Below, in pieces: positions 2,640-40,474 of a stretch of 64,000 bases of DNA. The notes below the pieces were generated by a model. That model had not been told where the DNA came from. It worked only from the letters and a program-made list of their open reading frames with translations, and ran no database searches. Within the stretch, counting starts at the first letter, position 1. The number at the start of each line of letters is the position of its first letter. This DNA is from an uncultured bacterium. Lineage in GTDB: Bacteria; Bacillota; Clostridia; Oscillospirales; Oscillospiraceae. Position numbers and translations under genes: made by a program. Location: positions 62,001-126,000 of the forward strand of contig CAMNQF010000003.1 in NCBI GenBank assembly GCA_946548895.1. Direction: 5' to 3'.

Positions 2640-2670
2640 GTTGTCACGCTACGAAGGGAACGGGGCGCTT
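2640..2670 (-). repeat. Intergenic repeat copy at the prmC stop codon (short form)
   Basis: Read on the minus strand this stretch is similar to the end of the longer copies at 3541-3674 and 40419-40474: a GCGCCCCG-like stretch, then TTCGTAGCGTGACAAC. The prmC stop codon TAG is part of the repeat. It is oriented with transcription, as in the other copies. Confidence 0.55.
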
Positions 2671-3518
2671 CCCTCCACCACCCGCCAGTGCATCCCCGGG
2701 TCCATGGTGGCCTGGATGTCCCGGTAACCGTTCCGCGCCATAATGTCCCGTACGGCCTGGGCCTGGTCGTACCCCACCTCAAAAGCCAGCTTTCCGCCGG
2801 GCTTCAGGGCCTGTTTCCATTTTTTCGCGATGGCCCGGTAGAATTTCAGCCCGTCCTCCCCGCCGTCCAGCGCCATCCGGGGCTCGTAGTCCCGAACGGA
2901 GGGGTCCAGCCGCCCCACCTCCAGGGTGGGAATGTAGGGTGGATTGCACAATATGAGGTCGAAGTCCCGCAGGATGCGGGGGGGCGGCTCCAGGGCGTCC
3001 ACCTGGGCGGCGCTGGCCTGCTGGGACAGGCCGCAGCGCAGGATATTTTGACGGCACACCCGCAGGGCGTCCGCGCACCACTCCGCCAGAATCACCCGGG
3101 TGTTGGGGCAGCTGTCCGCCACCGCCAGGCCCACGCAGCCGCTGCCGGCGCACAGGTCCAGCACCCGGACGCCGTCGGGCAGGTCCCGGGCAAACAGGAT
3201 GCCCCGCTCCACCAGGGTCTCCGTGTCCGGCCGGGGAATCAATACGTCCCGGCACACCTCCAGGGTGAGACCGTAGAACTCCCATTCCCCGATAAGGTAT
3301 GCCACCGGCTCCCCCGCCTGGCGGCGGTTCAGCAGGCCCCGGAACCGCTTCTCCACCCCGTCGGAGGCGTACAGGGTCAGGTCCCGGAAAAACTCCTTCC
3401 GATCCTTGCCGGACGCAAAGCACAGCAGCTCCCGGGCCTCCAGCTGGGCCTGCTCCACCCCCATCTCCTTCAGGGCCTTCCGGGCGTCCAGATACAGGTC
3501 GTTGTAGGTTGCGGGCAT
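2649..3518 (-). CDS. prmC: PrmC (HemK), release factor glutamine methyltransferase
   Basis: The 289-residue product has the PrmC N-terminal helical domain, the SAM-binding motif DLCAGSGCVG at residues 121-130 and the catalytic NPPY at 192-195 that holds the substrate glutamine. The enzyme methylates the Gln of the GGQ motif in release factors RF1 and RF2; a prfB gene is found later in this window. The ATG at 3518 follows GAGAGGGTGA, so the longer in-frame extension is not used. The stop codon TAG lies inside a repeated intergenic motif (TTCG-TAG-CGTGACAAC), so the last residues (about SAPFPS) may derive from that element. Confidence 0.93.
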   Translation of the reverse strand: MPATYNDLYLDARKALKEMGVEQAQLEARELLCFASGKDRKEFFRDLTLYASDGVEKRFRGLLNRRQAGEPVAYLIGEWEFYGLTLEVCRDVLIPRPDTETLVERGILFARDLPDGVRVLDLCAGSGCVGLAVADSCPNTRVILAEWCADALRVCRQNILRCGLSQQASAAQVDALEPPPRILRDFDLILCNPPYIPTLEVGRLDPSVRDYEPRMALDGGEDGLKFYRAIAKKWKQALKPGGKLAFEVGYDQAQAVRDIMARNGYRDIQATMDPGMHWRVVEGSAPFPS

Positions 3519-3540
3519 GGGCTCACCCTCTCTCTGCGTT

Positions 3541-3674
3541 GTTGTCACGCTGCGAAGCGGCCAGGGCGCTCGCTCGCTTTCCCTCCGCCCCGGCCTGGTC
3601 TGGGACGGCTTTGCCGCCCTGCGCCCGGCCTCGCTGCGGTCCAAGCTCGTTCGCTGTCCCCTTCTCCGCGCTTC
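3541..3674 (-). repeat. Intergenic repeat copy between the DUF1385 gene and prmC (long form)
   Basis: Read on the minus strand the element begins AAGCGCGGAGAAGGGGACAG five bases after the YqhQ stop codon and ends GGCCGCTTCGCAGCGTGACAAC-like just before the prmC ribosome site. Its ends match the 56-bp copy after the topoisomerase B gene (40419-40474) almost base for base; the middle contains about 80 extra bases, including CAAAGCCGTCC, which recurs at 36,980-37,000. It has no open frame of its own. Confidence 0.65.
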
Positions 3675-3678
3675 TCTC

Positions 3679-4650
3679 TTACCAGGCGTCGGCGCCCTTC
3701 TCCTCCGGCAGCACCCGCTTCAGTGCCTCAATCCCCACCTCAATCATGGCGTCGTCCGGCTCAAAGGTGGTGAAGTTCTGCATCCACATCCCCGGCGCCC
3801 GCAGGGCCCGGCACAAGGCCGTGTCGTGGCCGCCCACATAGCGGTTGAACTCATAGGTCACCCCCACAATGACAGGCAGCATCAGCAGATGAAGCGCCAT
3901 GCGCAGCAGGGTGTTCTCAATCTCCAGCGGGGTGAAGATCACGATGGACAGGAATATGGACACCGCGATGACCACAAACAGGAAGCTGGTGCCGCACCGG
4001 GGATGGTGCCGGGGCTGTCTGCGCACGTTGTCCACCGTCAGCTCCAGCCCGTTTTCATAGCAGTAAATCGTCTTATGCTCCGCGCCGTGATACTGGAACA
4101 CCCGGTGGATCTCCTTCATCCGGGAACAGAGATAGAGATAGCCCATGAAAATGGCCACTTTCAGTATGCCCTCCATCACCGAACGCGCCCACAGGGGCAT
4201 GGTGGTCCACACCAGGCCCACCAGCCCGGTGAGGGCAGTTGGCAGCAGGATAAACAGCCCCACCGAAAAGGCGATACCGATCACCGCCGCCAGGGTGATG
4301 ATAATGGACATGGCCTTGCCCTCCTCAAAGTGGTCGCTGATCCACTTGTCCAGGCCGGTGAGCTCTTCCTCCTCCGCGGTCCCGTCGTCGGACACCTCGG
4401 CGGAGTGCATCAGCGCCTTCATCCCGTGGACCATGGAGCCGCAGAAAATGAACAGTCCCCGGATAAAAGGCAGCTTGGCCAGGCCGCTCCTGGGCTTGAT
4501 GTCCTCCTCGGTGATGTCCAGCTCCCCATCCGGCTTCCGCACCACCACGGCGCGCTTGCCCGGCCCCTGCATCATGATGCCTTCCAGCAGGGCCTGCCCG
4601 CCGCAGGTGGTTTTGAACGGGGTGCAGCAATTCTTGTCTTGTTTTGCCAT
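3679..4650 (-). CDS. YqhQ-like DUF1385 membrane protein
   Basis: The 323-residue product carries the DUF1385 signature GGQALLEGIMMQGP near residue 20, the HGMKALMHSAE stretch, several hydrophobic segments (about residues 115-145, 150-175, 225-255) and the conserved FQYHGAEHKTIYCYENG motif. This is the YqhQ family, a conserved membrane protein of Firmicutes of unknown activity; the His/Glu-rich AEHKT motif suggests metal binding. The gene precedes prmC, a linkage common in Clostridia. The ATG at 4650 (MAKQDKN) has AAGGAGATA upstream; the longer ORF start is not supported. Confidence 0.85.
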   Translation of the reverse strand: MAKQDKNCCTPFKTTCGGQALLEGIMMQGPGKRAVVVRKPDGELDITEEDIKPRSGLAKLPFIRGLFIFCGSMVHGMKALMHSAEVSDDGTAEEEELTGLDKWISDHFEEGKAMSIIITLAAVIGIAFSVGLFILLPTALTGLVGLVWTTMPLWARSVMEGILKVAIFMGYLYLCSRMKEIHRVFQYHGAEHKTIYCYENGLELTVDNVRRQPRHHPRCGTSFLFVVIAVSIFLSIVIFTPLEIENTLLRMALHLLMLPVIVGVTYEFNRYVGGHDTALCRALRAPGMWMQNFTTFEPDDAMIEVGIEALKRVLPEEKGADAW

Positions 4651-4755
4651 GTTCAGACTATCTCCTTTGACCGCAGATCCGCAGGCCAGTATACCAGAAA
4701 CCGCCGGGGATTGCAACCGCATTTAAAACTTTCGTTCGATTTTTCTCCCGCCGCG

Positions 4756-6267
4756 TCAAGCGCCCTCCACCTTGATGGGCAGGCGGATGGTGGCCGCGCA
4801 GCCGCCTCCGGCGGCGTTGGCGATATCCAGCGTGCCGCCGTGGCTGTTGATGATCTCGTCGCACACCGCCAGGCCGATGCCGGACCCCCGGGCCTTGGAC
4901 GAGCCCTTATAAAACTTGTATTTAATGAAGGGCAGCTCCTCCTCCGGCACACCGGGGCCGTGGTCCCGGATGCGGATGACCACCTCGTCCCCGTCCCGGC
5001 CCACGGACACCTCCACCCGGCCGCCGGAGCCGCCGTGCTTGTCCGCGTTGTCCAGCAGGTTGCAGAACACCTGCCGCAGCCGCTCCGGGTCGCCGCTGAT
5101 GAGGGGCAGCTCCTCCTCGCATTCGGTATAGGCCAGCTCCAATCCCTTCCGGCGGAAAAACTCCCGGTAGGTGTACACCGCGTCCTCCAGCTCCGCCAGG
5201 ATGTCGATGGGCTCCACCGACAGGTTGAACCGGCCCGTCTCCATCCGGGAGAACTCCAGCAGCTCCTCCACCATGCGGGTGAGGCGCTGGGCCTCGGACA
5301 CAATGATGCCCATCCCCTTTTTCACATCGGCGGCGTCCCGGACCTCGCCGTTGTACAGCGTCTCCGCCCAGCCGTTGATGGCGGTCAGCGGCGTGCGCAG
5401 CTCGTGGGACACGGAGGAGATGAACTCCGACTGGGTGCGCTCCGCCTGGTCGATCTTCATGGACATATCGTTGATGCTGTCCACCAAATCGCCCATCTCG
5501 TCGTCCGACTTTTTCTCCATCTGCACCCCGTAGCTTCCCGCAGCGATGCGCTTGGCGGTCTCCGTCACCCGGATCACCGGGTCCAGCACGGAGCGGATGA
5601 AGTAGGACGCAATAATACCCATTACCACCAGAATGACCAGCCCGACGGAGGAAGTCACCGCCACAATGCGCAGCATCTGGGCCTTCACCTCCCGGAGGGA
5701 TGTGACCATGCGCACCACTCCGACCACCATGCTGTTGTACACCACCGGCGCGGAGGCGGACACGATGCTGTCCCCGGTGTCCGGGTCTATGCCGATGTTG
5801 GTCCGCACCCGCTTCTCGCTGATGGCGGCGTCCACATCGGGGCCCCGGGCGCTGGCTCCCGCTATGTCCATCATGGATGAGATCAGCACCCGGCCGCTGG
5901 CGTTCAGGATCTGGACCTCAATATAGTTTTTCTCCTCAAATTGGCTGACAAACTGCCGGGCGGTGGACAGATAGGTGGTCTCGGTGTAATTGCGGAACAT
6001 CCCGGCGGCGGTCTGGGCCTTGCCCTCCAGGGTGGCCAGAATGGTGGAGGTGTAATAGCTGTACATGGCCAGAGAGAAGGCGCTTACCGCGATGGCCACC
6101 ACCACCAGGGTGACAGCCAGCGTATTGAGCAGCCAGCGGCGGCTCAGACGGCCCCGCGTCCGGCGTCCGGCGGGGGCCTCGGCCGGAATCTCCTCCGCCG
6201 CAGCGTCCTCCCGCTTGGGCGCGATCGGCAGATTTTTGCGCCGTTTCCGTCGGCTCTCCTGTTCCAT
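4756..6267 (-). CDS. Membrane sensor histidine kinase
   Basis: The 503-residue product has a cytoplasmic basic N-terminus, a transmembrane segment at about 46-72, an extracytoplasmic sensor region of about 130 residues, a second segment at about 203-223, a HAMP linker at 224-276 and a HisKA domain with the phosphoacceptor His288 in SSVSHELRTPLT. The ATPase domain shows an N box (NLLDNADKHG), DHGPGVP and GSGIGLAVCDEI. It is the WalK/PhoR/ResE type. It is transcribed after its response regulator, separated by a 265-bp spacer that holds a duplicated regulator tail. The start has GGGGAGG 9 nt upstream. The signal is not evident from sequence. Confidence 0.93.
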   Translation of the reverse strand: MEQESRRKRRKNLPIAPKREDAAAEEIPAEAPAGRRTRGRLSRRWLLNTLAVTLVVVAIAVSAFSLAMYSYYTSTILATLEGKAQTAAGMFRNYTETTYLSTARQFVSQFEEKNYIEVQILNASGRVLISSMMDIAGASARGPDVDAAISEKRVRTNIGIDPDTGDSIVSASAPVVYNSMVVGVVRMVTSLREVKAQMLRIVAVTSSVGLVILVVMGIIASYFIRSVLDPVIRVTETAKRIAAGSYGVQMEKKSDDEMGDLVDSINDMSMKIDQAERTQSEFISSVSHELRTPLTAINGWAETLYNGEVRDAADVKKGMGIIVSEAQRLTRMVEELLEFSRMETGRFNLSVEPIDILAELEDAVYTYREFFRRKGLELAYTECEEELPLISGDPERLRQVFCNLLDNADKHGGSGGRVEVSVGRDGDEVVIRIRDHGPGVPEEELPFIKYKFYKGSSKARGSGIGLAVCDEIINSHGGTLDIANAAGGGCAATIRLPIKVEGA

Positions 6268-6304
6268 TTCCCCGTCGCCTCCCCTGGTCCGGCTCCTCCG
6301 TCAA

Positions 6305-6367
6305 GTCTCCCACTCGTACCCGTATCCCCACACTGTGCTGATGTGGGCGGGGTTCTGGGGGTCGTCC
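6305..6367 (-). pseudogene. Duplicated 3' end of the response regulator gene
   Basis: This 63-bp stretch repeats 6537-6599, the last codons of the response regulator, with a single mismatch. It still encodes the C-terminal residues VWGYGYEWET, followed here by TGA. Because its downstream sequence runs directly into the kinase ribosome site, this copy looks like the ancestral gene end, while the active gene now stops at a TAG created at the junction with the intervening 169 bp. Confidence 0.8.
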
Positions 6368-6536
6368 GCCCCATAAAAGCCAAAGGACGGCTTTCATGGG
6401 GACCCCTTGATTTCACGCAAACCGGCGGAAATGAATTCCGCCGGTTTCAAGGTTTTTGCTCCGCAAAAACGCTTGTACGGCGCACCCGCGCCGGCGCCGC
6501 TTGCGCGGCGTGAGGACGACCCGGCGGCCGGTCTAT
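6368..6536. repeat. Inserted 169-bp hairpin-rich segment between regulator and kinase
   Basis: The segment lies between the two copies of the duplicated regulator tail. It contains an 11-bp inverted repeat (AACCGGCGGAA...TTCCGCCGGTT at about 6421-6449), a second hairpin (GTTTTTGC/GCAAAAAC at about 6452-6470) and a GC-rich imperfect palindrome near 6485-6510. No gene with a ribosome site is seen. It looks like a small non-coding element whose arrival duplicated the flank. Confidence 0.6.
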
Positions 6537-7222
6537 GTCTCCCACTCGTACCCGTATCCCCACACCGTGCTGATGTGGGCGGGGTTCTGGGGGTCGTCCT
6601 CCAGCTTGATGCGCAGGCGCCGGATGTTCACGTCCACAATCTTCAGCTCCCCCAGGTATTCCTTGCCCCAGACGGCCTCCAAAATTTCCTCCCGTGCCAG
6701 GGCCTTCCCCGGATTCTCCATGAACAGCTTCACGATGGCGTATTCCACCTGGGTCAGCTTGATCCGCCTGCCGTCCTTCTCCAGGGTGCGGTTGCGGGTG
6801 TTCAACAGAAAGGGGGGCTGGCTCAACTCGTCCGCGTCCCGGACAGGCACGCCTCCCGTCCGGCGGAACAGGGCATCCACCCGGGCGGTGAGCTCCGCCG
6901 GGGAAAAGGGCTTGGTCACATAGTCGTCCGCCCCGGTCATCAGCCCGCTGACCTTATCCATCTCCTGGGTGCGTGCGGTGAGCATAATGATGCCCATCTG
7001 GGCGTTGCCCGCCCGGATGCGGCGGCACACCTCAAAGCCGTCCATCTCCCCGGGAAGCATAATGTCCAGCAGGGCCACCTTCACGTCCGGGTTCTGCTGA
7101 ATGAGGGCCAGCGCCTCCTCGCCGGTGCCGGCCTCAATGGTATCGTAGCCCGCCCGCTTCAGGTTGATGACCACAAAGCTGCGGATATTGGTCTCATCCT
7201 CCAAAACCAGTACCTTACGCAT
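6533..7222 (-). CDS. OmpR/PhoB-family response regulator
   Basis: The 229-residue product has a receiver domain with acidic pocket E9/D10-like residues (VLEDE), phosphoacceptor Asp53 in LLDIMLP, Thr82 region (LTART) and Lys104 in TKPF, then a winged-helix DNA-binding domain at about 133-229 ending VWGYGYEWET. It should be phosphorylated by the kinase encoded next and regulate transcription. The ATG at 7222 has a weak upstream purine stretch. The upstream neighbour on the same strand is a secreted lipoprotein, which may be its sensor accessory or target. The 3' end lies at the junction of a duplication described separately. Confidence 0.93.
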   Translation of the reverse strand: MRKVLVLEDETNIRSFVVINLKRAGYDTIEAGTGEEALALIQQNPDVKVALLDIMLPGEMDGFEVCRRIRAGNAQMGIIMLTARTQEMDKVSGLMTGADDYVTKPFSPAELTARVDALFRRTGGVPVRDADELSQPPFLLNTRNRTLEKDGRRIKLTQVEYAIVKLFMENPGKALAREEILEAVWGKEYLGELKIVDVNIRRLRIKLEDDPQNPAHISTVWGYGYEWET

Positions 7223-7255
7223 AATAAAACGTTCCCCGCTTTCTGTAAAATCCGA

Positions 7256-7411
7256 CCTCGCGCTTATCTGTTGGCACGCTCGGGCTGGGCGCATGGCCGG
7301 GTCGCTTTCGCTCCGTCTCAGGCAAAACACGGCCCACTGTGTGGTCCTTGCATTTTGCCTTCGCTCCGTTCCAAGCTCCCCTATGCGCCTGCCCTCGCGC
7401 TTATCTGTTGG
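7256..7411 (-). repeat. Intergenic repeat copy flanked by a 19-bp duplication
   Basis: A 19-bp sequence (CCTCGCGCTTATCTGTTGG) occurs at 7256-7274 and again at 7393-7411, where it includes the stop codon of the lipoprotein gene. The 118 bp between them contains CAGGGGAGCTTGGAACGGAGCG-like sequence (minus strand) closely similar to the copy at about 36,930-36,975. As in the regulator-kinase spacer, the end of the upstream gene has been duplicated across an inserted segment. Confidence 0.6.
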
Positions 7412-8759
7412 ACCACGCGGCGGTGATGGGATTGAACCGCTGGGCCACACCCGCCTCATCCAGCCCGCAATTCCACACCTTGGCGTCCAGGGACGCGCAA
7501 TAGATGGTGCTGCCGTCGCTGTGCAGCACCGTCCGGCCGGGCTGCTTGGACCGCGCCGTCCGATTGCTGCCGGTAAGGCGGTAGATGGTGAGAAACTTCT
7601 CCGGCTTTCCCGCCTCCCGCTCGGGCCAGTAGTAAAATACCACCGCCCGCTCCCCCCGGCCGCTGAGTCCGTCGTCCCGGGCCACGGTGATATTATTGAT
7701 ATCCCAGCCGTTGGGGAGGGTGAGATACCACCCGTCGGTAAAGGAGTGATAGGTAATGCCGCAGGTGGCGCTCCTGCCGTAGGAGTCGACCTGCTGCCAG
7801 TAGATCAGATACTGGGTGGCGGGGCTCTCCGGGTCCAGGGGAGCGAGCATCTGGGGCCGGGGGATCTCCACCACCCCGTCGTTGTTGATATCGGTGGCGG
7901 ACGCCTCGGTATTGGTCCAGGCGGTGGCCAGGCTCATCCCGCTCTCCGCATCCCGGGTGACGTTGACCAGCCCCTGCCGGTCCAGCGTGAGCACATCGGT
8001 CACGTACCCGTTCTCCAGCTCCAGGGTGACGTATACCCCCAGCTTCCCGTCGGACAGCAGGCCGGGTTCCGAGCGCACCACGTCCTTCAGCCCGTCGGAC
8101 AGCGCCCCGGTGAACGACAGGGTCAATACCCCCTCTTTATAATCGTAATACTCCGCCCGGTTGTTCCCCTCGCCGGTGGTATCCTGCTGGAATACGATGA
8201 GCTCCTTACAGCCGTCCTGATCCAAGTCCACGGTGGTGTAACCCTCGTTATAGGTGGTGTTCATCAGCTCGTTGGCCCCGCTGCCGGTGAAGTTGTAGGC
8301 GGACAGGGTGTGCACCCCCGCACTGAGCTGCCAGCTGATAATCAGTTCCCGGCTGCCGTCCCCCGTCAAATCCTCATAGGCCACGGAGTTAATGGAGGTG
8401 CCCGGCCCGGACAGCATCACATACTGCCGGTAGGTCTGGTCGCTCCCCTGCCGGAACATACACACCCGCATAGGCTTCTCCTCCGCGGCGGGCACCCGGA
8501 GAAATACCGCCGCCGTCTCCTGCTCGCCGTCTCCGTCCATGTCCAGCAGCTGAATGGTGGAGGTGTTGCTGCCGTAGTTAATGGTGGCGTACTCCGCGCC
8601 CAGCTCGTTCATGGTGGCGTCGATGGTGGTCTGAAGGTCTCGGTATTCCTGGGGCAGAACGGGCAGGGCGTACAGGTCGTCCACCGGCTTGAACACGCAG
8701 CCGCTCAGGCTCAACGCCAGCGCCGCCCCCAGGGCCGCCCGCAAAACGCGCCGTTTCAT
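7401..8759 (-). CDS. Secreted lipoprotein with VCBS/FG-GAP-like repeats
   Basis: The 452-residue product has a lipoprotein signal peptide (MKRRVLRAALGAALALSLSG followed by Cys21), so it should be lipidated and displayed on the outer face of the membrane. The mature part contains Asp-rich motifs of the VCBS/FG-GAP type: LLDMDGDGEQE, DLTGDGSREL, DLDQDGCKEL and DINNDGVVEI, which in known proteins bind calcium in beta-propeller blades. The ATG at 8759 follows GGGGGAGGG. It precedes the two-component genes on the same strand, so a role in sensing is possible but unproven. Function unknown. Confidence 0.8.
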   Translation of the reverse strand: MKRRVLRAALGAALALSLSGCVFKPVDDLYALPVLPQEYRDLQTTIDATMNELGAEYATINYGSNTSTIQLLDMDGDGEQETAAVFLRVPAAEEKPMRVCMFRQGSDQTYRQYVMLSGPGTSINSVAYEDLTGDGSRELIISWQLSAGVHTLSAYNFTGSGANELMNTTYNEGYTTVDLDQDGCKELIVFQQDTTGEGNNRAEYYDYKEGVLTLSFTGALSDGLKDVVRSEPGLLSDGKLGVYVTLELENGYVTDVLTLDRQGLVNVTRDAESGMSLATAWTNTEASATDINNDGVVEIPRPQMLAPLDPESPATQYLIYWQQVDSYGRSATCGITYHSFTDGWYLTLPNGWDINNITVARDDGLSGRGERAVVFYYWPEREAGKPEKFLTIYRLTGSNRTARSKQPGRTVLHSDGSTIYCASLDAKVWNCGLDEAGVAQRFNPITAAWSNR

Positions 8760-8797
8760 GGTCCCTCCCCCTTCCGTTTCAACCACAGTTAGAGGGT

Positions 8798-8803
8798 ATT
8801 ATA
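8798..8803 (-). promoter_or_regulatory. -10 box for the lipoprotein/two-component cluster
   Basis: A perfect TATAAT lies 39 nt upstream of the lipoprotein ATG on the minus strand; the hexamer 17 bp further upstream (TAGGCA) is a poor -35. Called on the -10 and position only. Confidence 0.45.
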
Positions 8804-8878
8804 TCACAGTTTTCCCGTTCTGCCTATGGATTTTTTGTAAACGGGAAAATTTTCTGCAACGCGGGCCCGCACGCTGCC

Positions 8879-8912
8879 CAAAAAACGGGGCGGCCCCAGA
8901 CGGCGCCGCCCC
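8879..8912 (-). terminator. Terminator of the MATE gene
   Basis: An 8-bp GC stem (GGGGCGGC/GCCGCCCC, 8887-8894 with 8905-8912) is followed on the minus strand by GTTTTTTG, just after the MATE stop codon. Confidence 0.8.
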
Positions 8913-8920
8913 GAAGTCTA

Positions 8921-10249
8921 TCAATATTGGTACTTTTTCCGCAGGGCCCACAAAAACACCGCCGTTACCGCCACGGCCAGCGCCTCCGCCGCCACGATGG
9001 ACAGCCAGATGCCGTCCACCCCCCAGATCAAGGGAAAGATGAGCACCGCCGCCGTCTGAAACACCAGGGTGCGCAGAAACGAGATCACCGCCGACACCAT
9101 GCCGTTGTTCAGCGCGGTGAAAAAAGAGGAGCCGAAAATGGCGAAGCCGGAAAACAGGAATGAGAAGGAGAAAATAAAAAAGGCCTGGACGGTGAGCTCC
9201 AGCAGCTCCGGGTCATAGCCCACGAACAGCCGGGACAGGGGCCGGGCCAGCAGCTGGGCGGCGGCGAACATGGCGGCGGCGAACACCGCGACAACCGCCA
9301 GGCTCCGCCGGCGCAGGCCCCGAAGCTCCCCGTGGTTCTGGGCGCCGTAATGGTAGCCGATCACCGGCGCCGTGCCCACCGAGTAGCCGATAAACACCGC
9401 CTGAAACACCAGGCTGACATACATCAGCACCCCGTAGGCCGCCACGCCGTCTCCGCCGGCGTAGCGCAGCAGCTGCGCGTTGTACAGCATACTCACCAGC
9501 GACCCGGAAATGCTGCTCATCAGCTCCGACGCGCCGTTGGTACAGGTTTTGACCAGCGCCCTGCCGTCAAAGCTGGTCCTGCCCAGCCGGAGCAGGCTGG
9601 AATTGGGCCGGGCGAAATAGAACACAGGCACCGCGCCGCCCACCACCTGGCTCAGGGCAGTGGCAGCCGCCGCCCCCTCCAGCCCCCAGCGGAACACCGC
9701 CACAAACAGGGCGTCCAGCGCCATATTGGCGCACCCCGCCGCCACCGTCACCATCAGGCCCAGAGCGGGCTTTCCAGCCGTGGCAAACAGGCACTGGAAC
9801 TCGTACTGGAGCACATAGGCCGGAATAGCCAGCAGAATGATCCGGCCATAGCGCACACAGTTTTCCAGCAGCTCTCCCTCCGCGCCCAGCGCCGACGCCG
9901 CCGGGCGGAGGATCAGCAGGCCCAGTGCGCTCAACGCCAGGCCGCTGGCCAGACCGGCGTATACCACCAGGGAAAACAGGCTGTTGGCCCGCTTTGCCTC
10001 CCCCTCCCCCATGGTCTTGGCGATGAGCGCCCCGCCGCCAGTGCCGAACATGAAGCCCGCGCAGCCCAGGATCATCAGCAGCGGAAAGACAAAATTCACG
10101 GCGGTAAAGGGTGTTTTCCCCACGTAATTGGACACAAAAAACCCGTCTACCACGCCATAGACGGAGGTAAACACCAGCATCACGATGGACGGCATGGTAT
10201 AGCGCAGCAGCTTTTTATAGGTAAAGTGATCTGACAGTTGGATTTTCAT
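8921..10249 (-). CDS. MATE-family multidrug efflux transporter
   Basis: The 442-residue product is a polytopic membrane protein with about 12 hydrophobic segments and the MATE features MPSIVMLVFTSVYGVVDGFF near residue 20 and VVGGAVPVFYF in the middle. It resembles MepA/NorM-type exporters that use a Na+ or H+ gradient to expel cationic drugs. It starts 12 bp after the MarR regulator gene on the same strand and shares its promoter, as in the mepR-mepA arrangement of Staphylococcus. The ATG has AGAGGAAG upstream. The substrate cannot be told from sequence. Confidence 0.9.
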   Translation of the reverse strand: MKIQLSDHFTYKKLLRYTMPSIVMLVFTSVYGVVDGFFVSNYVGKTPFTAVNFVFPLLMILGCAGFMFGTGGGALIAKTMGEGEAKRANSLFSLVVYAGLASGLALSALGLLILRPAASALGAEGELLENCVRYGRIILLAIPAYVLQYEFQCLFATAGKPALGLMVTVAAGCANMALDALFVAVFRWGLEGAAAATALSQVVGGAVPVFYFARPNSSLLRLGRTSFDGRALVKTCTNGASELMSSISGSLVSMLYNAQLLRYAGGDGVAAYGVLMYVSLVFQAVFIGYSVGTAPVIGYHYGAQNHGELRGLRRRSLAVVAVFAAAMFAAAQLLARPLSRLFVGYDPELLELTVQAFFIFSFSFLFSGFAIFGSSFFTALNNGMVSAVISFLRTLVFQTAAVLIFPLIWGVDGIWLSIVAAEALAVAVTAVFLWALRKKYQY

Positions 10250-10261
10250 AGCTTCCTCTCT

Positions 10262-10705
10262 TCATTGCTCAAGTTGTCTCGTTTTTTCCCGCAGGGCGGT
10301 GAGAAAACGCTCCGTCAGCTCCAAATTTTTGAGCACATCCTCCCGGCTCCAAGAGGAATAGATCTCATCCTCAATTCTCATCAGCGGGAGCACCGTGCGT
10401 TCCGCCAGCGCCCGGCCTTTCTCCGTCAGGCGGACGTTTTTTCCCCGGCCCTGTCCCGGCTCCAGCCGGACGGCCCCCTCCCCCTCCAGCCTGCGCAGGG
10501 CGGAGTTGATGGTCTGCTTGCTGGCCCCGGACTGGCGGACTACCGTCCGAAGGGGGCAGGGATCCCCCTCGCAGCAAAGGCAGTACAAAATCCTCATGAC
10601 GCTGTCCGACAAACCCATCCGCACCGCCGCGTCGTGGTACACGCCGTCCGTCTCCCCCAGCAGATAGTTGAAGCGCCGCAGCTCCTTGGAAATTGGCACA
10701 TCCAT
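10262..10705 (-). CDS. MarR-family regulator of the MATE pump
   Basis: The 147-residue product has a winged-helix domain: RMGLSDSVMRILYCL, then the recognition helix SGASKQTINSALRRLEGEGA and the wing GQGRGKNVRLTEKG. MarR proteins bind palindromes as dimers and release DNA when a ligand binds. The ATG at 10705 (MDVPISKE) has GGAGGG upstream; the much longer open frame is not the gene. A perfect 14-bp palindrome overlaps its promoter, so autorepression that also controls the MATE gene is the likely logic. Confidence 0.9.
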   Translation of the reverse strand: MDVPISKELRRFNYLLGETDGVYHDAAVRMGLSDSVMRILYCLCCEGDPCPLRTVVRQSGASKQTINSALRRLEGEGAVRLEPGQGRGKNVRLTEKGRALAERTVLPLMRIEDEIYSSWSREDVLKNLELTERFLTALREKTRQLEQ

Positions 10706-10720
10706 GGACCGCCCTCCTCT

Positions 10721-10758
10721 GTCCGAAATCGTACCCGCATTATAGTACGATTTCGGAC
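10721..10758. promoter_or_regulatory. Perfect palindromic operator, likely MarR site
   Basis: GTCCGAAATCGTAC (10721-10734) and its exact reverse complement (10745-10758) flank a 10-bp centre that contains the -10 box. Binding of a dimer here would block RNA polymerase. It lies 15 bp upstream of the MarR ATG. Confidence 0.85.
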
Positions 10759-11052: not shown

Positions 11053-11078
11053 GAATATCACCCAAGAAATTATGTCAA

Positions 11079-14144: not shown

Positions 14145-15749
<1,605 letters not shown>

Positions 15750-15812
15750 GGGGAAACGCGCCGCCAGCAGGCGAAGCGTGACAATAAGGCTGAGACAACG
15801 AAATAACCCGGC

Positions 15813-17666: not shown

Positions 17667-17667
17667 A

Positions 17668-32400: not shown

Positions 32401-32407
32401 AAACCGA

Positions 32408-32442
32408 AAAGAGGGCTCCGGCCGGCGGCCGGAGCCCTCTTT
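32408..32442. terminator. Bidirectional terminator between LCP gene and prfB
   Basis: A 16-bp perfect stem (AAAGAGGGCTCCGGCC and complement) with a 3-base loop; serves both convergent genes. Confidence 0.9.
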
Positions 32443-32444
32443 GC

Positions 32445-33569: not shown

Positions 33570-33653
33570 TGCGTTTTCATCCTTCCGCGGCGTTTGCCGT
33601 TATGTTCTGTCTCATTATATAAAAAACCGATCCGATTGTAAAGGCCCCAAGTC

Positions 33654-33694
33654 AAAAAACCGCCGCGGCCCCGCGATTGCGGGGGCCGCGGCGG
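33654..33694 (-). terminator. Terminator after the 34-aa ORF
   Basis: A 15-bp GC stem (CCGCCGCGGCCCCGC with a near-perfect complement) is followed on the minus strand by GTTTTTTG. It ends one base before the small ORF stop codon. Confidence 0.85.
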
Positions 33695-33695
33695 C

Positions 33696-33800
33696 CTAAC
33701 GCTGGCTGATCTGGGGTCCGTTTTGCCCCCAAAAGATCAGGTCGTCCACGTCCTGCGGCTCAGGCCCAGCCTGCCGCGCAAATTCCCGTCTATCTGTCAT
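33696..33800 (-). CDS. 34-residue hypothetical protein
   Basis: An ATG at 33800 with AAAAGGAG 9 nt upstream opens a 34-codon frame: it begins MTDRREFARQAGPEPQDVDD and ends IFWGQNGPQISQR. The stop is followed at once by a strong terminator, giving the layout of a real small gene between glnS and prfB. The peptide is soluble, with an acidic DVDDL patch. I recognise no family. It could alternatively be a leader peptide, but no regulated gene follows before the terminator. Confidence 0.55.
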   Translation of the reverse strand: MTDRREFARQAGPEPQDVDDLIFWGQNGPQISQR

Positions 33801-33912
33801 ACGTCACCGCTCCTTTTATCTGGTCTGCCGGCCAACCCAAAGATTTGGCCCATACAAACCAGTGTATGCACAAAGCGGTGCAACGATGACTAAAATTTTG
33901 GAGTTCCGGCCC

Positions 33913-35601
<1,689 letters not shown>

Positions 35602-35628
35602 GTCTGTCACTCCTCTGTAAAAATGAAA

Positions 35629-35657
35629 GTTGGGCCTTGGAGGCTCCAAAGCCCAAC
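35629..35657 (-). terminator. Terminator after the lipoprotein gene, in front of glnS
   Basis: A hairpin of GTTGGGC...GCCCAAC type is followed on the minus strand by TTTCATTTTT. It overlaps the predicted glnS transcription start, so it serves the upstream lipoprotein gene. Confidence 0.65.
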
Positions 35658-35658
35658 C

Positions 35659-35687
35659 ATTATATCTGTTTTCCGGGCGAAAAGCAA
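35659..35687 (-). promoter_or_regulatory. Promoter of glnS
   Basis: TTGCTT (35682-35687), a 17-bp spacer and TATAAT (35659-35664) on the minus strand, just below the lipoprotein stop codon. Confidence 0.75.
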
Positions 35688-35696
35688 CAGCTGTTT

Positions 35697-36899
35697 TCAC
35701 CAGAATACCGCCGTCCCGGAGCCCGTTTCCCCATCATACAGGGGAGCGATGGATTTTGCCGCGTCATACTCCTCGCAGGCGGGGTGGAGGGCGGCGTTCC
35801 ACTCATATCCCAGTTCGGTCAACTCCTGATCGGTGCGCAGCCGGAGCGCCGGGGACGGCTCCTCCTCCTGCTCCCCTCCCGGTTCCCCTTCCGCCCCGGC
35901 GGGGTACAGCTCCTGGGGCAGCAGGTGGCGGTAGCCCTCCGGGGTGGCCACGATGAGCCACAGCCCGCCGGAACCGCTTACCGGCTCCACCTCAATCCCG
36001 CACTGCTGGCACAGGTACTCCATGGCCATGAGCAGGCCAAAGTCGGAGGCGGGCTCCCCCGTCAGGGCGTACAGCGCCAGCGGGGTGCCCTGGACGTCCG
36101 GCCCGACGCTGGCGCTGCGGACAATGGCGGCCAGCTCCTCCACGGTGTAGCCCTCCCCCGACGGAGGATTGGCCTCCAGCAGGGCGGCCGCGGCGGTTTC
36201 CAGCTGCTGGGCGTACTCCCGCTCCTCCGCCGCCACCGCGTCCGCGCTCTGGCTCCAGGTCAGCCGCGCCTCAATCACCCGGCGGGTGCCCGTCTCCGGG
36301 TAGAGGATGATCTCCCGACTGCTGACGTCGTGGTGCCAGGACAGCTCCGGCGCGCTGTAGCAGGCCAGCGTCAGCAGATGTTCCAGCAGCTCCCTGTCGC
36401 CGGAGAAATAGGAGGCCAGAAAGGTAGCGGACGCCTCCTGGCCCGTCACCAGCCGTTTCAGCTCCTGCCGCACCCCGGCCAGGCCGGTGACCTCCCGGAG
36501 GGCGCTCACCTCATGGGCGCTGCGGGTGTAGGAGATCTGGAGCTCCACCTCATAATAGGTGAGGATGCGGGTGGCGCCGTAGGTCAGGGCGCGGACGGAA
36601 TAGGCCCCCAAGGGGTCGTCGTACAGCACCTCATCCCGGGCGTTGGCTAGGTCGGCTTCCACATCCCCGGTGTAGTTGTACAGCCGGATGGTGCCGCCTG
36701 TGCGGTGGTCGTTGACGAAGTAAAGTATGGCGTTGACCAGCCCCTGGTAGGTCTCCGCCCGGAGGATGGACTCGTCCTCCGTGACGGCGTAGTCCACATG
36801 GGTGCTGACCGTCTCCCTCCCCCGCTCCAGCATGGCGGCGCAGCCGGGAAGGAACAGCAGAGACAAGGCCAGCATCAGGGCCAATATCCGTTTTTGCAT
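35697..36899 (-). CDS. Lipoprotein of unknown function
   Basis: The 400-residue product has a lipoprotein signal (MQKRILALMLALSLLFLPG, then Cys20) and a mostly hydrophilic mature part with no domain I can name. Visible pieces include HRTGGTIRLYNYTGDVEAD, ILTYYEVELQISYTRSAHEV and a C-terminal YTVEELAAIVRSASVGPD segment followed by an acidic linker (EGEPGGEQEEEPSPAL). The latter part has the look of a transglutaminase-like region, which I could not confirm. The ATG follows GGGAGGTG. It is encoded between a YitT gene and glnS. Confidence 0.65.
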   Translation of the reverse strand: MQKRILALMLALSLLFLPGCAAMLERGRETVSTHVDYAVTEDESILRAETYQGLVNAILYFVNDHRTGGTIRLYNYTGDVEADLANARDEVLYDDPLGAYSVRALTYGATRILTYYEVELQISYTRSAHEVSALREVTGLAGVRQELKRLVTGQEASATFLASYFSGDRELLEHLLTLACYSAPELSWHHDVSSREIILYPETGTRRVIEARLTWSQSADAVAAEEREYAQQLETAAAALLEANPPSGEGYTVEELAAIVRSASVGPDVQGTPLALYALTGEPASDFGLLMAMEYLCQQCGIEVEPVSGSGGLWLIVATPEGYRHLLPQELYPAGAEGEPGGEQEEEPSPALRLRTDQELTELGYEWNAALHPACEEYDAAKSIAPLYDGETGSGTAVFW

Positions 36900-36927
36900 T
36901 ACGACACCTCCCGGCGGCGGACCGCCG

Positions 36928-37214
36928 TTTTTTTCGGTCCAAGCTCCCCTGTGCGGCTATCCTCGCGCTTCTAGCGGGGCCCCCGCAAAGCCGTCCCTCA
37001 GGCTTTGTGGGGAAAGGAAGGGCAGCGGAATGAGTTCGCTTTCGCCGCAGGCGGAAGCGAGGGATATGGAGCTTGCCCCGACGCTGTCACGCTCCGCCTG
37101 TTCGCGACGCGCGGCTTCGCTCCGTCGCGGGCAAAACCCCGTCCAACTCCGTTGGACTTGGGCTTTTCCCCGCGCTACGCTCCATCCGCGCTGCTCACGA
37201 CGGCTCCGCGCTTC
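36928..37214 (-). repeat. Compound intergenic repeat between the YitT and lipoprotein genes
   Basis: This 316-bp gap contains no supported gene. Reading on the minus strand it starts AGAAGCGCGGAGCCGTCG directly after the YitT stop, includes GGCGGAGCGTGACAGCG in the middle, and ends with a second AAGCGCGAGGATAGCCGCAC unit that matches the copy at 7392-7360. Motifs shared with the other copies (AAGCGCGGAG, GGAGCTTGGACCG, AGCGTGACA) mark it as a tandem or composite member. Confidence 0.6.
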
Positions 37215-37215
37215 T

Positions 37216-38082
37216 TTACAGATCGTCCTTTTTATAATCCCGGAAGCCCTCGCCCAGCACCTCGTGGGCGTCGCACACAATGACAAAGGCCGCCGGGTCA
37301 ATCCCCTTCACCGCCTCTTTGATGGCGGCAATCTCCCGCTGCTTGAAGGCGCACATCAGCACGTTCTTCTCCGTCCCGGTGTACGCACCCTGTCCGTGGA
37401 GAATGGTCACGCCCCGGTCCAGGTCCTTCACCAGCACGTCGGAAATCTCCTTGTTCCGGTCGCTGATGATATAGGCCACCTTGGCGGTGTCCATGCCGTA
37501 GAGCACCCCGTCCATGACAATGGTGGAGATATACAGGGCCACCAGGCCGTACAGGGCGGCGTACAGCGTGCGGAACGTAACCGCCACCGCCAGGATCACC
37601 GCCAGGTCGATGCCCATCAGCAGCTTGCCCATGGGCAGCCAGGCCAGCTTCAGCTTCAGCAGCCGGGCCAGCAGGTCGGTGCCCCCGGTGGTGGCCCCCT
37701 GCTGGAACACCAGCCCCAGGGACAGCCCCATCAGCACCCCGCCGAAAATGCAGGCCAGCATGGGGTCCATGGGCTCCCACTCCCGCAGGGGCGTGAGAAC
37801 GTCGATGAACAGCGAGGAGATGAACATGGCGTACAGCGACGACACCAGCAGCCGCCCGCCGATGAGCCGCCAGCCCAGCACAAACAGGGGGATGTTCAGC
37901 ACAATGACGGTGGCGCCCACGGGGAGCGCGGGGATCAGGTAGTTGATGAGCTGGCCCACGCCGGTGACACCGCCGAAGGCAATGCCGTTGGGCGCGTAGC
38001 ACCACACAAAGCCCAGGGCATACACGGCGGAGGCCACGGTGATGATGAGGACGGGAAACAGGGTCTTTCTCAATCGGGACAA
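37216..38082 (-). CDS. YitT-family membrane protein (DUF2179 C-terminal domain)
   Basis: The 288-residue product has five or six membrane segments of the YitT/DUF161 type (GIAFGGVTGVGQLINYLIPA; QQGATTGGTDLLARLLKLKL) and a C-terminal soluble DUF2179 domain (KVAYIISDRNKEISDVLVKD; DRGVTILHGQGAYTG; DAHEVLGEGFRDYKKDDL). The family is widespread in Firmicutes; its substrate is unknown. The start is TTG at 38082 with AAGGAGG upstream. Its 3' end runs directly into a repeated intergenic element. Confidence 0.9.
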   Translation of the reverse strand: MSRLRKTLFPVLIITVASAVYALGFVWCYAPNGIAFGGVTGVGQLINYLIPALPVGATVIVLNIPLFVLGWRLIGGRLLVSSLYAMFISSLFIDVLTPLREWEPMDPMLACIFGGVLMGLSLGLVFQQGATTGGTDLLARLLKLKLAWLPMGKLLMGIDLAVILAVAVTFRTLYAALYGLVALYISTIVMDGVLYGMDTAKVAYIISDRNKEISDVLVKDLDRGVTILHGQGAYTGTEKNVLMCAFKQREIAAIKEAVKGIDPAAFVIVCDAHEVLGEGFRDYKKDDL

Positions 38083-38114
38083 GACGGACGGCCTCCTTCA
38101 AAATTACGGTTCAT

Positions 38115-38152
38115 GTTGTCACGCCCCGCCTGTACGCGGCGGCTCGGCGCTT
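38115..38152 (-). repeat. Intergenic repeat copy at the topoisomerase A stop codon
   Basis: On the minus strand AAGCGCCGAGCCGCC...GGGGCGTGACAAC overlaps the end of the topoisomerase A gene; the gene's TGA stop is the TGA of the conserved GTGACAAC end. The final residues (about AEPPRTGGA) are therefore encoded by the element. Confidence 0.6.
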
Positions 38153-40398
38153 ATCATCATCTGCTCCTCCCCCCGGTCCTCCTCCTTGAGGAGGGCCCCG
38201 GCGGCGGGCAGGGACCGGGCCCGGTAGCGGGCGGCGTTGACAATGTGGGTGGACGCCAGCGGCCTGGCCCACTCCACCTTATGCCTGGCCTTCACCGCCA
38301 TGACCCCCACCCCCTGGGTGGCCCGGGTGGTCTTGGGCGTCAGCGACGCGGTGTGGAACACCACGCACCGCCCGTCGCTGGACCCCACCGCCATCTCCTG
38401 GTCCTCCGCCAGCAGGCAGGCGGACACCAGCGGGAACTTGTCGCAGTAGGCCCCGGTGAGCTTGCGCCGCCGGGTCTGGGTCTGGTAGGCGGACAGCTCC
38501 ACCCGGGCGGCCTTGCCGTTGTCAAAGAAAAACAGCACGTGGGCGGAGTAGTCCCCCGGGGCGCAGGCCCACACAAACTTCTCCTCCGGGTCCATGCCCA
38601 GCTTGGTTGGCAGGTAATCCCCCAGCAGGCTGGCCTTGCTGTCATCAAAGTCGCTGAGGCGGGTCTTGTAGCACTGCTGTTTGTCGGTGAACACCAGCAG
38701 CTCGTCCCCGTTGGCCCCCTCCCACTGGAGGAAGGGGCCGTCCCCCTCCTTGTACTTCTGTTCGCCGCTCATGCGGAGGGACTGGGGCGTGATCTTCTTA
38801 AAGTATCCCTCTTTCGAGAGAAACACATTCACCGGGTAAGCTGGGACTTCCTCCGCCGCCCCGGCCTGCACCTCCGCCTCCTGCTGGTACTCGTAGACAA
38901 TCTCGGTGCGCCGGGGGATGCCATACTTCTTTTTGACGTTTTTCAGCTCGTCGGTGATGATCCGCTTGATGCGCTCCGGGGAGTTGATGATATCCCGCAG
39001 GTCGGCGATCTCCTCCTCCAGGGCGGCGGTCTCCTCCACCCGCTTGAGGATATACTCCTTATTGATGTTGCGCAGCCGGATGTCGGCCACATACTCCGCC
39101 TGGACCTGGTCGATGCCGAAACCGATGATGAGGTTGGGCACCACCTCGGCCTCCTCCTCCGTCTCCCGGATGATGCGGATGGCCTTGTCGATGTCCAGCA
39201 GGATGCGCTTCAAGCCCTTGAGCAGGTGGAGCTTCTCCTCCTTCTTTTTGCACACGTGGTAGGTCCGCCGCCGGACCCCGTCCATCCGCCAGGCGGTCCA
39301 CTCCTCCAGGATCTCCCCCACCCCCATCACCCGGGGCATCCCGGCGATGAGGATGTTGAAATTGCAGGAAAAGGCGTCCTGGAGGGGGGTGAGCTGAAAC
39401 AGCCGGGCCATCAGCTTCTCCGGGTCGGCCCCCCGCTTCAGGTCCATGGCCAGCTTCAGGCCGTTCAGGTCGGTCTCATCCCGCATATCGGCGATCTCCC
39501 GGACCTTGCCCGCCTTTACCAGCTCGGCCACCTTGTCCAGAATGGCCTCCACGGTGGTGGAGTAGGGAATTTCGTAGATCTCAATCACGTTGTCCGCCTT
39601 GCTGTAGCGCCATTTGGCCCGCAGGCGGATAGACCCCCGGCCGGTGCGGTAGATGCCGGCCAGCGCCTCCCCGTCGTACAGCAGCTGTCCGCCGGTGGAG
39701 AAGTCCGGGGCCTTCAAAATGCCCAGCAGGTCCACGCCGGGGTCCCTCAGGTAGGCGATGGCGGCGTCGCACACCTCCCCCAGGTTGAACCCGCACAGGT
39801 TGGACGCCATGCCCACGGCGATGCCCTGGTTGGCGGACACCAGCACATTGGGGAAGGAGGTGGGCAGCAGGGTGGGCTCCATCAGCTTGCCGTCGTAGTT
39901 GGGGACGAAGTCCACCGCGTCCTGGTCGATGTCCCGGAACAGCTCCTGGCAGATGGGGTCCAGCCGCACCTCGGTGTACCGGGAGGCCGCCCAGGCCATG
40001 TCCCGGGAGTACACCTTGCCGAAGTTGCCCTTGGAGTCCACCAGCGGATGGAGCAGGGCGCCGTAACCTCGGCTGAGGCGCACCATGGTGTCGTAAATGG
40101 CCGCGTCGCCGTGGGGGTTGAGCTTCATGGTGGCCCCCACCACGTTGGCGGACTTGGTACGGCTCCCCCCCAGCAGCTTCATCTGGTACATAGTGTACAG
40201 CAGCTTGCGGTGGGAGGGCTTGAAGCCGTCGATCTCCGGGATGGCCCGGGACACGATGACCGACATGGCGTAGGGCATATAGTTCAGCTCCAGCGTCTCG
40301 GTGATGGGCTGCTCCAGCACCTGGGCCCGCAGGCCCATGACGTTGGGGTTTTCCACTTTTTTGGGGCCGTTCTGCTCTGGGGTCTTTTTCTTAGCCAA
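38119..40398 (-). CDS. parC: Type IIA DNA topoisomerase subunit A (ParC/GyrA-like)
   Basis: The 759-residue product has the winged-helix and tower regions of GyrA/ParC with the catalytic Tyr141 in AASRYTEVRL, the LNPHGDAAIYDTMVRLSRGY motif, and a shortened C-terminal region with beta-pinwheel-like blades. Together with the B subunit it passes one duplex through another using ATP. It is divergent from ordinary GyrA and may be a second, decatenating enzyme. The start is TTG at 40398 with AAGGA upstream. The C-terminus is formed by an intergenic repeat. Assignment as ParC versus another type II enzyme is tentative. Confidence 0.85.
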   Translation of the reverse strand: MAKKKTPEQNGPKKVENPNVMGLRAQVLEQPITETLELNYMPYAMSVIVSRAIPEIDGFKPSHRKLLYTMYQMKLLGGSRTKSANVVGATMKLNPHGDAAIYDTMVRLSRGYGALLHPLVDSKGNFGKVYSRDMAWAASRYTEVRLDPICQELFRDIDQDAVDFVPNYDGKLMEPTLLPTSFPNVLVSANQGIAVGMASNLCGFNLGEVCDAAIAYLRDPGVDLLGILKAPDFSTGGQLLYDGEALAGIYRTGRGSIRLRAKWRYSKADNVIEIYEIPYSTTVEAILDKVAELVKAGKVREIADMRDETDLNGLKLAMDLKRGADPEKLMARLFQLTPLQDAFSCNFNILIAGMPRVMGVGEILEEWTAWRMDGVRRRTYHVCKKKEEKLHLLKGLKRILLDIDKAIRIIRETEEEAEVVPNLIIGFGIDQVQAEYVADIRLRNINKEYILKRVEETAALEEEIADLRDIINSPERIKRIITDELKNVKKKYGIPRRTEIVYEYQQEAEVQAGAAEEVPAYPVNVFLSKEGYFKKITPQSLRMSGEQKYKEGDGPFLQWEGANGDELLVFTDKQQCYKTRLSDFDDSKASLLGDYLPTKLGMDPEEKFVWACAPGDYSAHVLFFFDNGKAARVELSAYQTQTRRRKLTGAYCDKFPLVSACLLAEDQEMAVGSSDGRCVVFHTASLTPKTTRATQGVGVMAVKARHKVEWARPLASTHIVNAARYRARSLPAAGALLKEEDRGEEQMMISAEPPRTGGA

Positions 40399-40418
40399 TG
40401 GGATCAGTCCTTCTTACT

Positions 40419-40474
40419 GTTGTCACGCTGCGAAACGGCCAGGGCGCTCGCTCGCTGTCCGCTTCTCCGCGCTT
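40419..40474 (-). repeat. Intergenic repeat, compact 56-bp copy between topoisomerase genes
   Basis: On the minus strand it begins AAGCGCGGAGAAGCGG directly after the topoisomerase B stop codon and ends CGTTTCGCAGCGTGACAAC, 20 bp before the topoisomerase A start. It is the shortest complete copy and defines the ends used to recognise the others. Short internal pairings (GAGCGAGCGC/GCG) are possible. Confidence 0.7.

What the first reader, a model, noticed from the sequence alone, without database searches (positions are those of the whole stretch)
2640..40474. Dispersed intergenic element that sits exactly at gene stop codons and is always co-oriented with transcription
Seen directly: copies at 40419-40474, 3541-3674, 2640-2670, 38115-38152, 7256-7411 and 36928-37214, with weaker traces at 15773-15783 and 48332-48345. 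On the transcribed strand they begin like AAGCGCGGAG and end like TTCGCAGCGTGACAAC. Copies abut the upstream stop (0 bp for topoisomerase B, 4 bp for DUF1385) and in prmC and topoisomerase A the stop codon is inside the element, so the element encodes the protein's C-terminus. Same orientation, same location and variable middles suggest either a mobile element with strict 3'-of-gene targeting or a functional mRNA module (coupling, processing or stability) between genes of an operon. I know of no described family with these properties; that novelty is inference.
Basis: partly seen in the sequence, partly recalled or inferred. Interest (0 to 1): 0.85.

Follow-up and report, generated by a model that had tools for sequence, protein, structure and literature searches.

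The report
Mobile hairpin element at stop codons

Summary
A dispersed, mostly 132-139-nt imperfect hairpin with fixed ends (GAAGCGCGGAG...GCnGCGTGACAAC) and a variable, compensating middle gives 69 model matches in this 3.8-Mb genome. It occurs in 27 of 36 other genomes of the genus and in 14 of 106 genera sampled in the family; 23 genomes from 23 other families of the order gave none. In this genome 28 of 57 insertions have their 5' end within -4..+6 nt of a true stop codon (1.3 expected); with relatives 65 of 126 (3.4 expected). The 3' end never does (0 of 19). In co-directional gaps it points with transcription 93:8. A second set (126 insertions, named genomes) agrees (64 of 103; 89:12). 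Copies away from stops lie behind terminators more often than chance. Empty orthologous sites show that it inserts. Y1, Y2, IS110, integron-integrase and reverse-transcriptase genes do not track copy number; no Rfam match was found. Best reading: a mobile palindromic element, enzyme unknown, whose 5' end targets gene 3' ends. Main rival: a functional RNA module kept there by selection. 'Always co-oriented' is too strong, and the 287-bp copy is a composite.

The parts
3541..3674 (-). full-length element between DUF1385 (stop 3679-3681, 4 nt upstream) and prmC (start 3518, 22 nt downstream)
   Evidence: 109 bits; occupied also in L113, L118, L124, empty in L115, L116, L119, L121, L125
37083..37214 (-). 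full-length element (type B stem) 1 nt after the stop of a YitT/DUF2179 gene (37216-38082)
   Evidence: 97.8 bits; fold z -5.25
7270..7403 (-). full-length element (type C stem); its first three bases are the TAA stop of the upstream gene 7401-8759; next gene is a response regulator
   Evidence: 89.5 bits
40419..40475 (-). short 57-nt element between topoisomerase subunit B (stop TAG 40475-40477, last base shared with the element) and subunit A
   Evidence: 58.2 bits; empty site L086 TCGTAAGTAAGG against TCGTA[element]AGTAAGAAGG
38115..38152 (-). mini-element encoding the C-terminus and TGA stop of topoisomerase subunit A; begins AAGCGCCGAG, ends GGCGTGACAAC
   Evidence: not found by the model
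2640..2670 (-). mini-element encoding the end and TAG stop of prmC
   Evidence: 18.9 bits; model matches at this gene end in relatives L113, L116 (two), L122, L126
36890..36971 (-). truncated element downstream of the second repeat
   Evidence: (17.8 bits)
15753..15785 (+). 33-nt mini-element starting 3 nt after the TAA of the PEP carboxykinase gene (14145-15749, +), in the orientation of its neighbours
   Evidence: (22.1 bits)
48332..48345 (+). 14-nt remnant (AGAAGCGTGACAAC) directly after a hairpin and T-run, + strand
   Evidence: weak (11 bits)

Best explanation
A family of short, apparently non-autonomous, mobile palindromic elements. Shown: fixed ends that pair with each other as the base of a long hairpin; a middle that changes with compensating pairs; tandem copies usually 3-4 nt apart; presence or absence at orthologous junctions; a 5' end placed on stop codons, and less often just behind intrinsic terminators, mostly in the direction of transcription. 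Inferred: an unknown trans-acting enzyme recognises the conserved hairpin base and inserts the element so that its 5' end abuts the 3' boundary of a translated or transcribed unit. A stop-like trinucleotide contributes a little (2-fold); a true in-frame stop counts about 50-fold per position, so the machinery, or what exposes the DNA to it, seems to respond to a gene end and not only to a trinucleotide. One concrete possibility (inference only): the non-template strand becomes single-stranded where ribosomes leave the transcript (stop codon) or where polymerase terminates, and the element inserts there as a folded single strand, which would also give the orientation. Once in place it is a very stable hairpin at the end of a cistron and probably affects local mRNA decay (inference).
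For: Structure: 33 pairs, 86.7% of cells paired, 19 pairs and 77 cells changed on both sides, covariation 0.365 against 0.143 shuffled and at most 0.134 slid. Position, this genome alone: 28 of 57 at -4..+6 of a true stop against 1.3 expected, and 13 of 57 against 0.9 when only stops that end before the element count. With relatives: 65 of 126 against 3.4, and 0 of 19 for the 3' end; 38 of 126 at 0..+6. Second set from named genomes: 64 of 103 and 89:12, 56 of 126 at 0..+6. Convergent gaps: 8 of 10 within -4..+6 while the other stop is 14-420 nt away. Co-directional gaps of at least 80 nt: 22 of 41 at -30..+6. Terminators: 12 of 97 non-stop copies against 2.9% of control positions; antisense terminators at the 3' end 7 of 254, like the control. 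Insertion: empty sites. Copy number 0 to >=54 within the genus. Different subfamilies at one junction: L205 is 65-66% identical to L150, L153 and L291, which share 91-95%. The stop bias is alike in high-scoring copies (18 of 33) and the rest (47 of 94), which argues against slow selective loss as its only cause.
Against: No mobilising gene was found. No constant target duplication: 3-bp flank match in 11 of 126 against 3.0 expected, inflated by tandem copies; spacer equals left flank in 5 of 14 tandem pairs against 0.64 expected; none at the topoisomerase site. Paired positions are protected between orthologous copies (broken pairs 30 against 51.6 expected), which purely selfish DNA would not need at a fixed site. 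In convergent gaps of the second set only 3 of 10 are within -4..+6. Copies in relatives are partly shared by descent, so the p-values overstate independence. Bit score is a poor proxy for age. Gene calls come from my own codon-usage caller. Negative offsets can be created by the insertion itself.
Confidence: 0.6

Rival explanations
1. A functional 3' mRNA module (stability, processing or reinitiation) that spreads slowly and is kept by selection only when it sits right behind a coding sequence in sense.
For: Strong covariation; fewer broken pairs than expected between orthologous copies, 0 of 1000 simulations as low; in 5 of 12 such pairs the element is 93-97% identical while the 250-nt flanks are 81-92% (in others the flanks are the more alike); fold z-scores from -1.1 to -7.6 in ten copies, eight at -3.9 or below; sense bias.
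Against: Absent from many orthologous junctions at the prmC and topoisomerase loci and not found in 9 of 36 other genomes of the genus; 12 copies lie just beyond a terminator; no dependence of the stop bias on score; one-sided G-U against A-C cells are equal over the 32 upper pairs (145 against 147), so no sense-strand asymmetry was seen apart from the closing pair, G-U in 145 of 153.
Confidence: 0.25
2. An ordinary MITE with little target preference: insertions elsewhere are lost, so only the narrow space between stop and ribosome-binding site remains.
For: Gap types used match the background; many operon gaps are short; a ribosome-binding-like motif lies between element and start in 31 of 34 close cases.
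Against: Does not explain polarity: the 3' end is never at a stop (0 of 19), in convergent gaps the 5' end often is, long gaps are still hit at the stop (22 of 41), and co-directional gaps are 93:8. No constant duplication.
Confidence: 0.12
3. A REP/REPIN moved by a Y1 (RAYT) transposase.
For: Short palindrome, many copies, mostly extragenic.
Against: PF01797 not found in this genome or in G002, G013, G014, G016, G018, G022, G023, each with at least 20 matches at E<=1e-6.
Confidence: 0.02
4. An integron attC site or a decayed cassette array.
For: Alike in anatomy: imperfect palindrome of similar size behind a stop codon, in sense (attC size and place recalled).
Against: No integron integrase above cut-off in 17 genomes (weaker matches to other recombinases exist); the element inserts without a gene; neighbours are largely housekeeping genes; the ends do not fit the attC core motif (motif recalled).
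Confidence: 0.01

Closest known systems
QMITE2 of Coxiella (PMC5896051: passages read, part of the abstract among them)
   Same: 150-190 bp structured repeat, mainly in 3' untranslated regions and intergenic; one copy gives enhC a new C-terminus in one strain and has a stop immediately before it in another
   Different: variable direct repeats of 7-11 nt; forward and reverse insertions mapped; carries a GTAG REP; no general register with stop codons and no covariation in the passages seen
Rickettsia palindromic elements (passages of review PMC10969869; rest recalled)
   Same: about 150 bp palindromes that fuse in frame with genes
   Different: integrated in unrelated genes; no register with stop codons in the passages seen
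ERIC and Correia elements (passages of PMC10969869)
   Same: repeats between genes, transcribed; ERIC at the 3' end of Yersinia genes alters mRNA decay
   Different: usual MITE ends and target duplications (recalled); no 5'-end register with stops in the passages seen
REP/REPIN with TnpA-REP (passages of PMC8266576)
   Same: hairpin, mostly intergenic
   Different: 20-50 nt with a tetranucleotide, mostly GTAG, and a Y1 enzyme, not found here
Integron attC (recalled; PMC8876359 seen in the search listing only)
   Same: hairpin directly behind stop codons, in sense
   Different: needs IntI and moves with its gene; not met
TAACTGA repeats of Beggiatoaceae (passages of PMC4679880)
   Same: mostly intergenic, oriented; 13 sets overlap the stop of an upstream gene
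   Different: heptamer direct repeats that carry stops in all three frames, so that overlap with stops follows from their sequence

Membership tests
REP/REPIN (RAYT) | Y1 (PF01797) transposase in genomes with many copies | tested here: not met
   0 matches in G000, G002, G013, G014, G016, G018, G022, G023
REP/REPIN (RAYT) | 20-50 nt palindrome preceded by a tetranucleotide, mostly GTAG | tested here: not met
   132-139 nt with other ends in the 18 aligned copies
Integron attC | integron integrase | tested here: not met
   0 of 17 genomes above the curated cut-off
Integron attC | site travels with a cassette gene | tested here: not met
   the element alone is missing at empty junctions
MITE | short insertion in many copies | tested here: met
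MITE | terminal inverted repeats and constant target duplication | tested here: inconclusive
   ends pair through internal loops; 3-bp duplications only in some copies
MITE | parent transposon with the same ends | tested here: inconclusive
   no long, gene-carrying version noticed in the stretches fetched; not searched genome-wide
IS91/ISCR relatives | Y2 transposase (PF04986) | tested here: not met
   1 of 17 genomes, a fragment in G012, which has no copies; the control genomes gave no match either
IS110 relatives | DEDD transposase (PF01548) in all carriers | tested here: not met
   none in G002, G013, G016, G023, G027, G032
Retroelement | reverse transcriptase (PF00078) in all carriers | tested here: not met
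   none in G013, G018, G032 (assemblies 94, 92 and 71% complete)
Known structured RNA | match to an Rfam family | tested here: not met
   none at gathering scores in the window; (4 loci): best hit 26 bits where 70 are needed

The most novel reading that the evidence does not exclude
The element homes to the 3' boundaries of expression units: its insertion is coupled to translation termination or transcription termination (for instance by strand exposure where ribosomes leave the message), so that stop codons serve as target sites in the sense strand.
Probability: 0.3. Interest if true: 0.9.

Novelty: new variant of a known kind. Interest (0 to 1): 0.72.

Why it matters
Small palindromic repeats are common, but a placement locked to stop codons by one defined end, mostly in transcription sense and repeated across genera, points to a choice of target not described for such elements in what I could read. 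It makes insertion coupled to translation or transcription testable, offers a natural way to append sequence at gene ends with little harm, and changes protein C-termini in housekeeping genes (prmC and a topoisomerase subunit here).

Tried and rejected
Chance similarity: rejected. Rfam family: none. The 287-bp copy as one element: rejected, composite. Longest-ORF gene calling gave shadow genes, replaced by a codon-position rule. Replication-strand explanation of the orientation: not favoured, because copies in both orientations occur on one contig and follow their genes, not tested formally. Homology of the target with the element's own 5' end: the right flank of 179 isolated copies matches GAAGCG with 0-1 mismatch in 22 against about 12.5 shuffled, suggestive only. 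Constant 3-bp duplication: not established. G-U/A-C asymmetry as a test of RNA-level folding: no overall difference. One measure was weak: further pair types 40 against 35.5, reached by 40 of 500 shuffles. Enzyme hunt: five families, none tracks. Phage and plasmid collections: no match to one copy. Five of the 80 listed genome contigs stretches gave no model match at E<=0.001: on reading, L203, L222 and L232 (Flavonifractor) look like real, diverged copies that the model misses, and L215 and L258 (other phyla) look like chance.

Rows dropped. One search used 63 of 70 hits (left out: one duplicate, two cut by locus ends, four partial or weak) and 87 of 87 hits. One search used 115 of 120 hits (left out: three cut by locus ends, one beside a cut copy, one weak) and 57 of 78 (left out: 20 in the parC/prmC loci, one cut), then removed 26 duplicate arrays. 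drop arrays too near a locus end (126 of 128 kept; 57 of 58 for this genome). One search used a hand-typed list without weak hits. One search keeps pairs of 84-98.5% identity and drops pairs within this genome; 12 of 55 pairs remain.
Full report
What is there. The listed copies exist and belong to a dispersed family. The 3'-end word TTCGNAGCGTGACAAC (at most 2 mismatches) occurs 35 times in the genome against 0 for the reversed control. Eighteen full copies align at 132-139 nt. They fold as one long imperfect hairpin: the first bases G-AA-GCGC-GGA pair with the last bases GCA-GCGT-GA-C, the stem above differs between subfamilies but keeps pairing, and an inner hairpin follows. On the 33-pair structure 77 cells changed on both sides; covariation was 0.365 against 0.143 in shuffles and at most 0.134 when slid; the count of further pair types was weaker (40 against 35.5, reached by 40 of 500 shuffles). 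The structure was drawn by me from one copy's fold and the alignment, so it leans towards these sequences. Folding z-scores of ten copies range from -1.1 to -7.6, eight at -3.9 or below. The closing pair is G-U in 145 of 153 cells.

How many and where. The model gives 69 matches at E<=0.01 in the genome, some partial and two of them identical contig ends. It matches 27 of 36 other genomes of the genus, with 1 to at least 54 copies (54 candidates were scored per genome), and none of 23 genomes from other families of the order. In the family it matches 24 of 200 genomes and 14 of 106 genera, this one included (only 16 candidates scored per genome, so misses are likely). Three diverged Flavonifractor copies were missed by the model, so copy counts outside the genus are lower bounds.

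Placement. Genes were called with a codon-usage caller trained on the window. For 128 insertions (150 copies) in this genome and relatives the flanking genes, seen from the element, are +/+ in 93, -/- in 8, +/- in 10, -/+ in 13, and one side is missing in 4. The background of gap types (407 co-directional, 58 divergent, 50 convergent) is similar, so gap type is not selected but orientation is. This genome alone, where copies are not shared by descent between species: 44 +/+ against 4 -/-, and 28 of 57 insertions with the 5' end at -4..+6 nt from a true co-oriented stop against 1.3 expected from all intergenic positions on both strands. Because an insertion can itself create a stop at negative offsets, the conservative count is 13 of 57 at 0..+6 against 0.9 expected. 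With relatives: 65 of 126 against 3.4, a 50-fold rate per position, against 2.1-fold for other TAA/TGA/TAG words; the 3' end is never within 6 nt of an opposing stop (0 of 19). In convergent gaps, where no ribosome-binding site constrains the space, 8 of 10 are within -4..+6 and all 10 within -44..+3; the second set has 3 of 10 and 6 of 10 within -24..+3. In co-directional gaps of at least 80 nt, 22 of 41 are at -30..+6. The second set of 126 insertions from named genomes and viral contigs gives 89 to 12 and 64 of 103. Pooled, the commonest offset is 0 (41 of 251 insertions), and TAA is over-represented (68 TAA, 40 TGA, 21 TAG at elements; 244, 367, 88 among genes called in the first set). Orphan or mini copies found by the exact 5' word, not used for the model, sit 0-3 nt behind a called stop in seven places (L323, L324, L325, L328, L329, L330, L041 at 1300) and elsewhere in others (L326 and L323 at 7797 inside genes; L327, L331, L041 at 1931). 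Copies not at a stop lie within 14 nt behind a terminator-like hairpin and T-run in 12 of 97 against 2.9% of control positions; at least two of the 12 repeat a site seen in another species, and antisense terminators at the 3' end (7 of 254) are at the control level.

Insertion. Orthologous junctions show occupied and empty states. At the topoisomerase junction this genome has TCGTA[element]AGTAAGAAGG and L086 has TCGTAAGTAAGG. The DUF1385-prmC junction is occupied in L110 (this genome), L113, L118 and L124 and empty in L115, L116, L119, L121 and L125. The prmC 3' end carries model matches in L113, L116 (two in tandem), L122 and L126 and none in L111, L112, L115. At L068 the element brings TAA where the empty relative L167 has TGA at the same codon; at L060 it brings TAG where the homologous stretch on viral contig L301 has TGA. 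Tandem copies are 3 nt apart in 14 of 25 pairs and 4 nt in 5. A 3-bp duplication is seen in some cases only. At several junctions different species carry different subfamilies, which suggests repeated insertion or replacement at one site.

Constraint. For 12 orthologous pairs with 84-98.5% identity, 6 compensating, 14 one-sided and 30 broken pairs were seen against 2.1, 23.6 and 51.6 expected when the same substitutions are relocated. Paired sites are therefore protected, by function, by need for mobility, or by exchange between copies; the data do not separate these. The stop bias does not depend on the model score (18 of 33 high-scoring, 47 of 94 others; 3 of 12 in the lowest bin), which favours insertion preference over slow loss, though score is a weak proxy for age.

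Mobiliser. Y1, integron integrase, reverse transcriptase, IS110 and IS91 do not track copy number in the genomes searched (37 genomes, 17 in each of the others), some of them incomplete. One copy has no match in the phage and plasmid collections. Eight viral contigs carry the two-end pattern and all eight are model matches; they may be prophages or mis-binned host DNA. The mobiliser remains unknown.

What is known. Paper searches: REP with Faecalibacterium, intergenic repeat terms, Flavonifractor with repeat element (none), Rickettsia elements, MITE with stop codon, Oscillospiraceae with palindromic repeats (none), insertion after the stop, attC, hairpin between stop and next gene. I read passages of four papers, none whole. 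The nearest are QMITE2, the Rickettsia elements, ERIC and Correia, REP, and TAACTGA repeats. One QMITE2 copy has a stop immediately before it in one strain, and 13 TAACTGA sets overlap stops, but none of those passages describes one defined end registered on stop codons genome-wide in sense. The library holds open-licence papers only, so absence there is not absence from print.

Verdict. A real, structured, mobile family with an unusual, replicated placement rule; the mechanism is open.

Noticed in passing
window 36955-37082 (-); also L050, L071, L141, L144, L160, L165: A second dispersed repeat (GTCGGGGCAAGCTnCATATCnCTCGCTTCCGCC ... GCTGCCCCTCCTTTCCCCACAAAGCC ... GGCTTTGCGGGGGCCCC), alone or directly behind the element's 3' end (7 of 30 loose matches, some of the 30 clearly unrelated).
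   Followed up: partly
window 6305-6370 and 6537-6602: Direct repeat of 66 nt at 97% identity, 232 nt apart.
   Followed up: no
L056 1-187: One copy follows a sequence that looks like the 3' end of a 23S rRNA gene, and an ORF that looks like an IS256-type transposase lies downstream (both recognised from recall): possibly a copy at a non-coding gene end.
   Followed up: no
L296-L303 (viral contigs): Eight IMG/VR contigs hold the element, perhaps prophage or mis-assigned host DNA.
   Followed up: partly
termini of copies: The first two bases and the two bases after TGA at the 3' end tend to vary together as complements (AT..AT, TA..TA, AC..GT, AG..CT, TG..CA), while the common form GA..CA does not pair; seen by eye, not counted.
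   Followed up: no
L102, L104, L105, L109: gap before parC: In some other species the same junction holds other sequence of 210-257 nt, not checked with the model; the site seems to tolerate insertions of several kinds.
   Followed up: no
L203, L222, L232: Flavonifractor copies with the same two ends but a different middle, missed by the model: the family is wider than the model.
   Followed up: partly
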